In this document: one piece after another, positions 4,299 through 6,113 of the stretch
How positions within the stretch are numbered: the stretch's first letter is position 1
Layout of the letters: each line of letters opens with the position of its first letter
Origin: JACPSX01 sp035288405 [NCBI: bacterium]
GTDB lineage: Bacteria; JACPSX01
NCBI GenBank assembly: GCA_035288405.1
Contig: DATEAK010000049.1
Span: 1-6,113 of the forward strand
Direction of reading: 5' to 3'
Length of the DNA stretch: 6,113 bases
Position numbers and translations under genes: made by a program
Notes under the pieces: model-generated
Told to the model about the DNA's origin: nothing
Database searches by the model: none
What the model saw: only the letters and a program-made list of their open reading frames with translations

Positions 4299-5079
4299 CG
4301 TCCTCACCCTCTTTCCGGAGATCTTCGAGTCTCCTCTAAACGCGAGTCTTCTGCGCAAGGCTCAGGAGCGGGGAGCCGTTCATTTTGCCATCTACAACCT
4401 GCGCGATTATGCTGTGGATCGTCACCGGACCACGGACGATTCCCCCTTCGGTGGAGGGGCAGGAATGGTTCTCAAACCGGAGCCCATTGTGCGAGCGCTG
4501 GAAGCTGTCCAGTCCCAAGGGGAAAGGGGCAAGGTCATTTTGCTCTGTCCTCAGGGCCGGCGACTCAGTCAGGAAATTGTCCAGGAACTGTCCTCCGAGA
4601 GCCGCTTGATCCTGCTTTGCGGCCACTACGAAGGGGTGGATGAGCGCATCCGGTTGCACTATGCGGACGACGAGATCTCGATCGGGGACTATATCCTGAC
4701 GGGAGGAGAGTTGCCTGCCCTGGTTCTCCTAGATGCGGTGGTCCGGTTGCTTCCCGGGGCTCTAGGGAATCCCGGCTCGACCCGTGATGAATCGTTTTGC
4801 GGAGGGGGACTCGATTACCCTCAGTACACCCGGCCGCAGGAATTTGAAGGCCGGCGGGTGCCGGATGTCCTCCTCTCGGGTGATCACCGGGAAATTGCGC
4901 GCTGGAGGCGCAAGGAGGCTTTACGCCGAACTCGAGACAGAAGACCCGACTTGCTGGATCTAAGCGTGCTGACGGCCGAGGACCGCAAACTCCTGGATGA
5001 AAGCGAACGGGAAGACCTGCTTAGAACTTCCGCACCGGACGGTCACGCGTTGGAATCCTCCGCAGCGCAGCGGAAATGA
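4288..5079 (+). CDS. trmD: tRNA (guanine-37-N1)-methyltransferase TrmD
   Basis: TrmD uses S-adenosylmethionine to make m1G37 in tRNAs, next to the anticodon, preventing +1 frameshifting. The 263-residue product begins MRIDVLTLFPEIF and contains the SPOUT trefoil-knot elements in order: DDSPFGGGAGMVLKPEPI (50-67), LLCPQGRRLSQ (85-95), LCGHYEGVDERI (110-121), and SIGDYILTGGELPALVLLDAVVRLLPGALGN (131-161). R153 and D167 (in STRDESF) match the catalytic Arg and Asp known for bacterial TrmD. LDYPQYTRP (175-183) and the C-terminal helical tRNA-binding region with LLSGDHREIARWRR (195-208) complete it. The start overlaps rimM by 11 nt and the stop overlaps the next gene by 4 nt (ATGA), implying coupled translation. 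The C-terminal tail after about 250 is unconserved. Confidence 0.98.
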   Translation: MRIDVLTLFPEIFESPLNASLLRKAQERGAVHFAIYNLRDYAVDRHRTTDDSPFGGGAGMVLKPEPIVRALEAVQSQGERGKVILLCPQGRRLSQEIVQELSSESRLILLCGHYEGVDERIRLHYADDEISIGDYILTGGELPALVLLDAVVRLLPGALGNPGSTRDESFCGGGLDYPQYTRPQEFEGRRVPDVLLSGDHREIARWRRKEALRRTRDRRPDLLDLSVLTAEDRKLLDESEREDLLRTSAPDGHALESSAAQRK

Positions 5080-5681
5080 AATCGTTCCTCTCCGATGTTT
5101 TTCTTGCCCTGGTTCACTACCCGGTTACCAACAAACGGGGGGAAGTGGTGGTCAGCGCTCTCACAACTCTCGACGTGCACGATATTTCTAGAGCTGCGGC
5201 CACCTACGGTGTGCGAGGCTTTTATGTGGTCACCCCTCTGGAGGCTCACAAGGAGCTGGCGGCTCGGATGTGCCGACATTGGATCGATGGCTACGGCTCC
5301 ACCTATAATCCCCTGCGTGGTGAAGCCTTGCGCTATTCGCACGTAGTCGACACGGTAGAAGATGCTGTTGCCGCCGCAGCTCGGGAGGCGGAAATTTCCC
5401 CGGTCGTTGTGGCCACAACAGCTCGGGATGTGGAGAGACCGCGGCTCTCGTACGAGTCGTTGCGGCGTCAATTACAGGAATCGGAAGGTGCTTATCTTCT
5501 TCTGTTCGGGACGGGCTGGGGGCTTACGGAAGAAATCCTGTGCAGATCAGACCAGGTGCTTGCTCCCATATGCGGCCCGACCTCGTACAACCACCTCTCG
5601 GTTCGAAGCGCCGTCGCGATTACACTGGATCGACTCCTGGGATCGAGACAAAAAGAGAAATTTTGCCCTGGCGCGGAGTGA
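5076..5681 (+). CDS. SPOUT-type SAM-dependent RNA methyltransferase linked to TrmD (TM1570-like, PF09936 family)
   Basis: This 201-residue protein resembles the small SPOUT methyltransferase family represented by Thermotoga maritima TM1570, which sits beside trmD in several phyla. The N-terminus FLALVHYPVTNKRGEVVVSALTTLDVHDISRAA (9-41) is a strong family block. It is followed by GVRGFYVVTP (45-54), the HWIDGYGSTYNPLRGEAL segment (68-85), LLLFGTGWGL (141-150, the glycine-rich SAM-binding turn) and GPTSYNHLSVRSAVAITLDRLLG (167-189, the knot region). No signal or membrane segment is seen. The RNA target is not known to me; the location suggests tRNA or rRNA. The ATG overlaps the trmD stop by 4 nt, so expression is probably translationally coupled. 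The tail after about 190 is unconserved, and a promoter for rplS begins inside its last codons. Confidence 0.88.
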   Translation: MKSFLSDVFLALVHYPVTNKRGEVVVSALTTLDVHDISRAAATYGVRGFYVVTPLEAHKELAARMCRHWIDGYGSTYNPLRGEALRYSHVVDTVEDAVAAAAREAEISPVVVATTARDVERPRLSYESLRRQLQESEGAYLLLFGTGWGLTEEILCRSDQVLAPICGPTSYNHLSVRSAVAITLDRLLGSRQKEKFCPGAE

Positions 5682-5706
5682 CTCCAGTCCTGGGACGTGC
5701 TATACT
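5678..5706 (+). promoter_or_regulatory. Internal extended -10 promoter for rplS
   Basis: GTGACT (5678-5683) resembles a -35 box, and 17 nt later TATACT (5701-5706) matches 5 of 6 of the -10 consensus and is preceded by TG at 5698-5699 (extended -10). Transcription would start near 5713, just past the methyltransferase gene. This would let rplS be made independently of the upstream genes. Confidence 0.55.
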
Positions 5707-5712
5707 ACCTCG

Positions 5713-5834
5713 CCATGCCGGGCCGGGATGTAAGTATACAGGTCCAGCAAACACGCAATCTTACGCTCCCGAGAAGGGAGTTTTTGTTGGTTCGGGCATG
5801 CTTTAGGAATTCTTAAGTAGAGGAGAAGTATCCC
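5713..5834 (+). promoter_or_regulatory. Attenuator-like leader of rplS with competing helices
   Basis: The leader can form CGGGA-T-GTAAG (5724-5734) paired with CTTAC-GC-TCCCG (5760-5771), 10 Watson-Crick pairs plus a possible T-G wobble and one bulge. It can alternatively form the terminator hairpin at 5766-5780. Both use bases 5766-5771, so they exclude each other, the layout of a transcription attenuator. Ribosomal protein genes, including rplS in some Firmicutes, are known to have autoregulatory leaders; this one matches none I recognise. The ligand is unknown, with L19 itself the obvious candidate. Confidence 0.45.
5766..5785 (+). terminator. Intrinsic terminator-like hairpin before rplS
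   Basis: CTCCC (5766-5770), loop GAGAA, GGGAG (5776-5780) and then TTTTT (5781-5785) form a compact stem and T-run, extendable by a G-T pair (5765/5781). It is downstream of the rplS promoter and upstream of the rplS start, so it may attenuate rplS or partly end transcription coming from ffh. Confidence 0.55.
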
Positions 5835-6113
5835 ATGGGTGGGGTGGAGATCGTCGCAGCGGAACAGGTAAAGCAACGGGTGCCTTCCTTTCGGATCGGG
5901 GACCAGGTGAAAGTTCACCTCCGCATCAGCGAGGGAGAAAAAGACCGAATCCAGGTGTTTGAGGGTCTTGTGATTTCACGTAAGGGCGAGGGAGTCAACG
6001 AGAGTTTTACCGTGCGGAAAGTTTCCTATGGGATCGGGGTCGAGCGGATTTTCCCCTTGCACTCCCCGCGGGTAGAGAAAATCGAGGTGGTCCGGCAGGG
6101 TCAGGTACGGCGG
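5835..6113 (+). CDS. rplS: Large ribosomal subunit protein bL19 (3' end outside window)
   Basis: bL19 is a 50S protein at the subunit interface, contacting 16S rRNA through an intersubunit bridge. The 93 visible residues contain [35 protein letters not shown] (19-53) and [37 protein letters not shown] (57-93), which are the near-invariant core of bL19. The frame is still open at the last base; family members usually run about 20-30 residues further, ending in a lysine-rich YYLR region. ATG 5835 is supported by AGGAG at 5821-5825, 9 nt upstream; an in-frame GTG at 5844 is poorly spaced from it. It closes the conserved ffh-to-rplS gene order and appears to have its own promoter and structured leader. 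Confidence 0.97.

What the first reader, a model, noticed from the sequence alone, without database searches (positions are those of the whole stretch)
5713..5834. Mutually exclusive antiterminator and terminator upstream of rplS
Directly seen: arms 5724-5734 and 5760-5771 can form about 11 pairs with one bulge. The CTTACGCTCCCG arm includes the whole CTCCC that is the 5' arm of the terminator hairpin (5766-5780, then TTTTT). A good extended -10 promoter lies just upstream, so the whole switch would be in a short dedicated leader. Inference: L19 or another signal decides between the folds and so sets rplS expression separately from the ffh-trmD genes. I recognise no described leader class that fits.
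Basis: partly seen in the sequence, partly recalled or inferred. Interest (0 to 1): 0.6.

Follow-up and report, generated by a model that had tools for sequence, protein, structure and literature searches.

The report
Promoter and terminator before rplS
In front of a bacterial gene for ribosomal protein L19 lie a good promoter-like site and a likely transcription terminator, an ordinary way to limit expression, while the proposed RNA switch between two folds is hardly better than chance and could not be tested in close relatives.

Summary
The sequence features are as described: arms 5724-5734 and 5760-5771 form 11 pairs with C5766 bulged; the terminator hairpin is 5765-5781, with TTTTT at 5781-5785; an extended -10 ends at 5706. 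Promoter (0.5% of shuffles) and terminator (2 of 2000 gap shuffles, criterion set with the hairpin in view) look real. The antiterminator does not clearly exceed chance: helices as stable arise in 3.9% of shuffles of the upstream RNA and 11.5% of the window's own segments, and sequestration of the terminator arm as strong in 43% and 50%; only 1 of 36 natural hairpins has so stable a competitor. Once the terminator's 3' arm is out, equilibrium folding favours it (1.00). No close relative was reachable (best Ffh identity 64%), so covariation was not testable. Of 71 distinct rplS upstream gaps of 60-350 nt, only one (L002) holds a strict terminator; 30 of 87 gaps of 45-350 nt carry promoter-like sites at p<=0.05. 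No Rfam family matches, the L19 leader included. Most likely: a dedicated rplS promoter whose leader holds an intrinsic terminator that trims expression. Whether it is regulated is open.

The parts
5076..5681 (+). SAM-dependent RNA methyltransferase gene (PF09936) between trmD and rplS; last gene before the leader
   Evidence: E 6.9e-70
5678..5706 (+). sigma-70-type promoter-like site, GTGACT-17-TATACT with TG before the -10
5713..5834 (+). predicted 122-nt leader of rplS (start position inferred from the -10)
   Evidence: inference
5716..5749 (+). upstream hairpin that would block part of the antiterminator's 5' arm (possible anti-antiterminator); 27% of 1000 shuffles fold as well
5724..5734 (+). 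5' arm of the alternative (antiterminator) helix
5760..5771 (+). 3' arm of the alternative helix; overlaps the terminator's 5' arm
5765..5785 (+). intrinsic-terminator hairpin (6 pairs, loop GAGAA, -10.3 kcal/mol) and TTTTT
5835..6113 (+). rplS (ribosomal protein L19), cut by the window's end; a GAGGAG ribosome-binding site is seen by eye just upstream
   Evidence: PF01245, E 2.1e-37

Best explanation
rplS has its own promoter at the end of the methyltransferase gene, giving a leader of about 122 nt, and an intrinsic terminator about 70 nt into that leader stops part of the transcripts from this promoter and of the read-through from the ffh-trmD genes. L19 output is thereby set by promoter strength and read-through. 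The overlapping helix 5724-5734/5760-5771 may slow formation of the terminator during transcription but need not be a regulated switch. Shown: the sequence elements, and their excess over shuffles for promoter and terminator. Inferred: the start site, that both work, partial termination, and the absence of a ligand.
For: Promoter and terminator exceed shuffles. Promoter-like sites at p<=0.05 in 30 of 87 distinct rplS upstream gaps of 45-350 nt, about 4 expected, though many of these loci are near kin of each other. Terminator helix at probability 1.00 from 5780 on. The alternative helix does not clearly exceed chance.
Against: Only one of 71 distinct gaps of 60-350 nt (L002) holds a strict terminator, and L002 is not among the gaps with a promoter-like site at p<=0.05, so the arrangement is not conserved at this distance. 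A terminator in front of an essential ribosomal gene makes most sense if it is regulated. Among natural terminator-like hairpins only 1 of 36 has so stable a competitor. A loose terminator scan finds no excess in the window.
Confidence: 0.5

Rival explanations
1. A regulated three-state attenuator: hairpin 5716-5749 (anti-antiterminator), helix 5724-5734/5760-5771 (antiterminator) and hairpin 5765-5781 (terminator) exclude each other in turn; a protein such as L19, stabilising the first, promotes termination, as L10(L12)4 does on the Bacillus subtilis rplJL leader.
For: The three helices can form and overlap as required; on 5713-5771 the free fold (first hairpin) is -12.9 and the fold with the antiterminator enforced -12.5, and the antiterminator is favoured (0.82) at 5774, before the terminator arm is complete. 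Same anatomy as rplJL (PMC4538822, abstract). Competitor this stable in only 1 of 36 natural hairpins.
Against: First hairpin reached by 27% of shuffles and arm sequestration by 43%; leader z -1.21 and -1.29; nothing similar in the gaps read.
Confidence: 0.22
2. The hairpin mainly ends transcripts of the ffh-trmD-methyltransferase genes, and rplS is expressed by leakage; the promoter-like site 5678-5706 is weak or silent.
For: The hairpin starts 84 nt after the methyltransferase stop; L002 has a terminator-like hairpin 20 nt after the same gene.
Against: The scan found no promoter-like site between 5786 and rplS, so rplS would depend on leakage; the site 5678-5706 scores above 99.5% of shuffles.
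Confidence: 0.15
3. The hairpin is not an active terminator (five U followed by GUUGG, 6-pair stem) but a leader stem, possibly inside the long closing helix 5714-5724/5789-5800, with an effect on mRNA stability only or none.
For: The closing helix has probability 1.00 once 5801 is made and 0.82 at 5834; loose terminator-like sites are no commoner in the window than in shuffles (4 against 7.0).
Against: Stem plus uninterrupted TTTTT is rare in shuffles; the fold of the whole leader has z -1.21 only.
Confidence: 0.13

Closest known systems
Bacillus subtilis rplJL leader (L10(L12)4 transcription attenuation; PMC4538822, abstract read)
   Same: Ribosomal-protein gene; leader that can form an anti-antiterminator, an antiterminator and an intrinsic terminator.
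   Different: There each structure was tested by mutation, competitor oligonucleotides and L10(L12)4 binding; here they are only predicted, the first two do not clearly exceed chance, and the gene is rplS.
L19 leader of Firmicutes and Flavobacteria (Rfam RF00556; PMC7247131, two passages read)
   Same: Lies upstream of rplS.
   Different: RF00556 is a 42-position model; no match here at E up to 10.
Promoter-like sites before rplS in distant relatives
   Same: Promoter-like site in the same gap.
   Different: In six Dadabacteria loci and the L115-like group the -10 starts 35-37 nt before rplS, leaving no room for a leader with a terminator; here it starts 134 nt before.

Membership tests
L19_leader (RF00556) | covariance-model match upstream of rplS | tested here: not met
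   No match in 5640-5900 at E<=10 or in the window at E<=5. Control: the model rings above its cut-off in 1 of 14 control genomes, B. subtilis, and below it (27 of 36 bits) directly upstream of rplS in the genome of L013; it did not ring in the Firmicutes genomes of L003 and L014.
Any other family of Rfam 15 | match to any of 4227 models in the leader | tested here: not met
   No match in 5640-5900 at E<=10; three weak, sub-threshold matches elsewhere in the window
Transcription attenuator | promoter followed by an intrinsic terminator in the leader | tested here: met
   (sequence level only; activity not testable here)
Transcription attenuator | mutually exclusive alternative helix beyond chance | tested here: inconclusive
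   3.9% of shuffles and 1 of 36 natural hairpins by energy; 43% of shuffles by sequestration
Transcription attenuator | compensatory changes in both helices among relatives | not testable with these tools
   Nearest relative reached, L071, has 64% Ffh identity, and its rplS overlaps trmD
rplJL-type autogenous attenuation | encoded ribosomal protein binds the leader and promotes termination | not testable with these tools
   needs binding and transcription assays

The most novel reading that the evidence does not exclude
An autogenous three-state transcription attenuator of rplS, with L19 stabilising the hairpin 5716-5749, unlike the L19 leader modelled in Rfam, in a lineage that the Ffh-TrmD tree puts apart from the Firmicutes rows (no Flavobacteria were in that tree). 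A review states that there is no information on regulation of the trmD operon (PMC10931766, passage read).
Probability: 0.12. Interest if true: 0.55.

Novelty: new member of a known kind. Interest (0 to 1): 0.24.

Why it matters
If regulated, it would be a new way to balance L19 against the enzymes encoded in the same gene cluster; a 2024 review says that nothing is known on regulation of the trmD operon (PMC10931766, passage read). As it stands it is an ordinary promoter-terminator leader with an unproven switch, and a reminder that a partner helix for a GC-rich terminator arm is easy to find by eye.

Tried and rejected
Three viral-contig scans found none. With Ffh, the phyla of L071 (5 genomes), L024 (1), L048 (118 drawn), L031 (60 drawn) and L049 (18) gave no match as good as L071's; searches used a cut-off of 1e-158 and came back empty. 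In L002's phylum (77 genomes) only the methyltransferase was sought, best identity 54%. The window's phylum is therefore not assigned.

Covariation test on the two helices: not run, as no relative with a comparable leader was found. Leader peptide: of the ATG starts in 5690-5834 only 5715 gives an ORF that spans the structures (to 5816, 33 codons), and it would start 2 nt after the inferred transcript start without a ribosome-binding site; kept as a note. Rfam: no match in the leader. Searches (four Firmicutes loci, gathering cut-off; L003 upstream of rplS) gave no L19 leader and so were no positive control; one search supplied one. One search aligned one stretch in the wrong orientation and was not used.

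Looser terminator screens: (loose, L001-L083) listed hairpins also in L021, L023, L026, L040, L049, L064, L067 and L068; (TTTT or 5 T of 6) gave 9 of 140 undeduplicated gaps: L002 three times (also as L081 and L172), L006, L026, and L115, L116, L124, L126, the last four being the inverted repeat over a promoter. Only L002 passes the strict criterion.

Dropped or flawed rows: of 133 distinct gaps, 3 over 350 nt were not examined for terminators, 40 are under 30 nt or overlaps (15 negative), so the fair denominator is the 71 of 60-350 nt. L153 and L163 gave an impossible gap (-357), probably an artefact of stop assignment, and stayed in the 133. L117 and L123 show no rplS on the stretch held. 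Three partial hits (G011, G064, G065) were not fetched.

Full report
What is there. The window carries ffh, rpsP, a KH-domain gene, rimM, trmD, an RNA methyltransferase of family PF09936 and the start of rplS on the + strand (one search confirms trmD, the methyltransferase and rplS; the other names are recalled from the gene order and were not scanned). Between the methyltransferase stop at 5681 and the rplS start at 5835 lie 153 nt. A promoter-like site, GTGACT-17-TATACT with an extended TG, begins at the end of the methyltransferase gene, and a hairpin 5765-5781 is followed by a T run, T5781-T5785.

Chance. The promoter score is reached by 0.5% of 2000 shuffles of the region, though 14 of 297 tiles of the window do as well. 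A stem of at least 5 pairs with 4 G-C and an uninterrupted TTTTT occurs in 2 of 2000 shuffles of the gap; this criterion was set with the hairpin in view. With a looser scan terminator-like sites are not in excess in the window (4 against 7.0). The antiterminator was tested in several ways. By duplex energy 3.9% of 3000 shuffles of the upstream 45 nt and 11.5% of 800 segments of the window pair as well with the terminator arm, and 14 of 31 chance terminators in shuffled windows have as good a partner. Among 36 terminator-like hairpins of loci L001-L080 only one has, and none of 16 with matched hairpin energy, which speaks mildly for it. By the probability that the terminator's 5' arm is held by upstream RNA, 43% of 2000 shuffles and 50% of 514 segments do as well. 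Fold z-scores are +0.18 for 5713-5774, -1.29 for 5713-5790 and -1.21 for the whole leader.

Folding along transcription. In equilibrium folds of growing transcripts the antiterminator has probability 0.49 at 5771, 0.82 at 5774, 0.73 at 5777 and 0.00 at 5780, where the terminator is at 1.00; later the antiterminator's outer part returns to at most 0.04. A closing helix 5714-5724/5789-5800 forms around the terminator once 5801 is made. A further hairpin, 5716-5749, competes with the antiterminator's 5' arm and is about as stable; 27% of 1000 shuffles fold as well. So the anatomy of a three-state attenuator can be drawn, but without a factor the terminator should win unless kinetics hold the antiterminator. 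Kinetics were not simulated.

Relatives. The window's own genome is not held. The one scan of genome contigs gave 80 loci, L19 identity 55-72%. By Ffh the closest is L071, 64%; in it rplS overlaps trmD. Five phylum searches with Ffh found no match as good. In L002's phylum 69 of 77 genomes have the methyltransferase; the step to rplS was read in 64 of these 69 (28 of 30 loci; 35 more, and G003), two of the 64 being artefacts. Over all loci 133 distinct gaps were found, 71 of them 60-350 nt long. Of the 130 not longer than 350 nt one, L002, holds a strict terminator: CTCCCC-TTTGGAAAA-GGGGGG then ATTTTT, 20 nt after the methyltransferase; looser screens list a few more. In L002 the flank AGGGGGAT could also pair with the terminator arm (read by eye, not tested). 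Promoter-like sites at p<=0.05 occur in 30 of 87 distinct gaps of 45-350 nt; many of these loci are close kin. In six Dadabacteria loci and in the L115-like group the -10 starts 35-37 nt before rplS. A promoter-like site before rplS is thus recurrent; the leader with a terminator is not, at this distance.

Known families. No Rfam 15 model matches the leader, including L19_leader RF00556, which rings in B. subtilis among 14 control genomes, and below its cut-off just upstream of rplS in the genome of L013, but in none of the other 8 genomes searched. PMC7247131 (two passages) mentions the L19 leader in Firmicutes and its extension to Flavobacteria; PMC4342826 (passages) lists an L19 leader before rplS in Bacillus methanolicus. 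The closest mechanism is the B. subtilis rplJL attenuator (PMC4538822, abstract). PMC10931766 (passages) states that there is no information on regulation of the trmD operon. Literature searches that bear on rplS leaders were made; they cover only the open library held.

Judgement. A dedicated promoter with an intrinsic terminator in its leader is the best-supported reading. The regulated switch is possible but not shown, and L19 as the signal is a guess.

Noticed in passing
L115, L116, L124, L126, L155 (gap of 68 nt before rplS): A promoter-like site (TTGTGA or TTGAGA, 17 nt, TATGAT or TATCAT) whose -10 lies inside an inverted repeat GCGGAT...ATCCGC, 37 nt before rplS; in L138 and L146 the promoter is kept and the repeat is degraded.
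   Followed up: partly
L029, L032, L033, L047, L051, L055: Six Dadabacteria loci share TTGACA-17-TATATT with the -10 starting 35-36 nt before rplS, after the methyltransferase gene: a likely dedicated rplS promoter.
   Followed up: partly
L002 (72-nt gap before rplS): Strong terminator-like hairpin 20 nt after the methyltransferase gene; the flank AGGGGGAT could pair with its 5' arm.
   Followed up: partly
window 5715-5816: A 33-codon ORF from ATG 5715 runs through the hairpins, without a ribosome-binding site; and ATG-TAA at 5728-5733 lies inside the antiterminator's 5' arm.
   Followed up: partly
window 5714-5800: Closing helix 5714-5724/5789-5800 (CAUGCC/GGCAUG plus further pairs) that would wrap the terminator in read-through transcripts.
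   Followed up: partly
L153, L163: The frame of the methyltransferase hit reads past the rplS start (computed gap -357 in both), probably a stop-assignment artefact.
   Followed up: no
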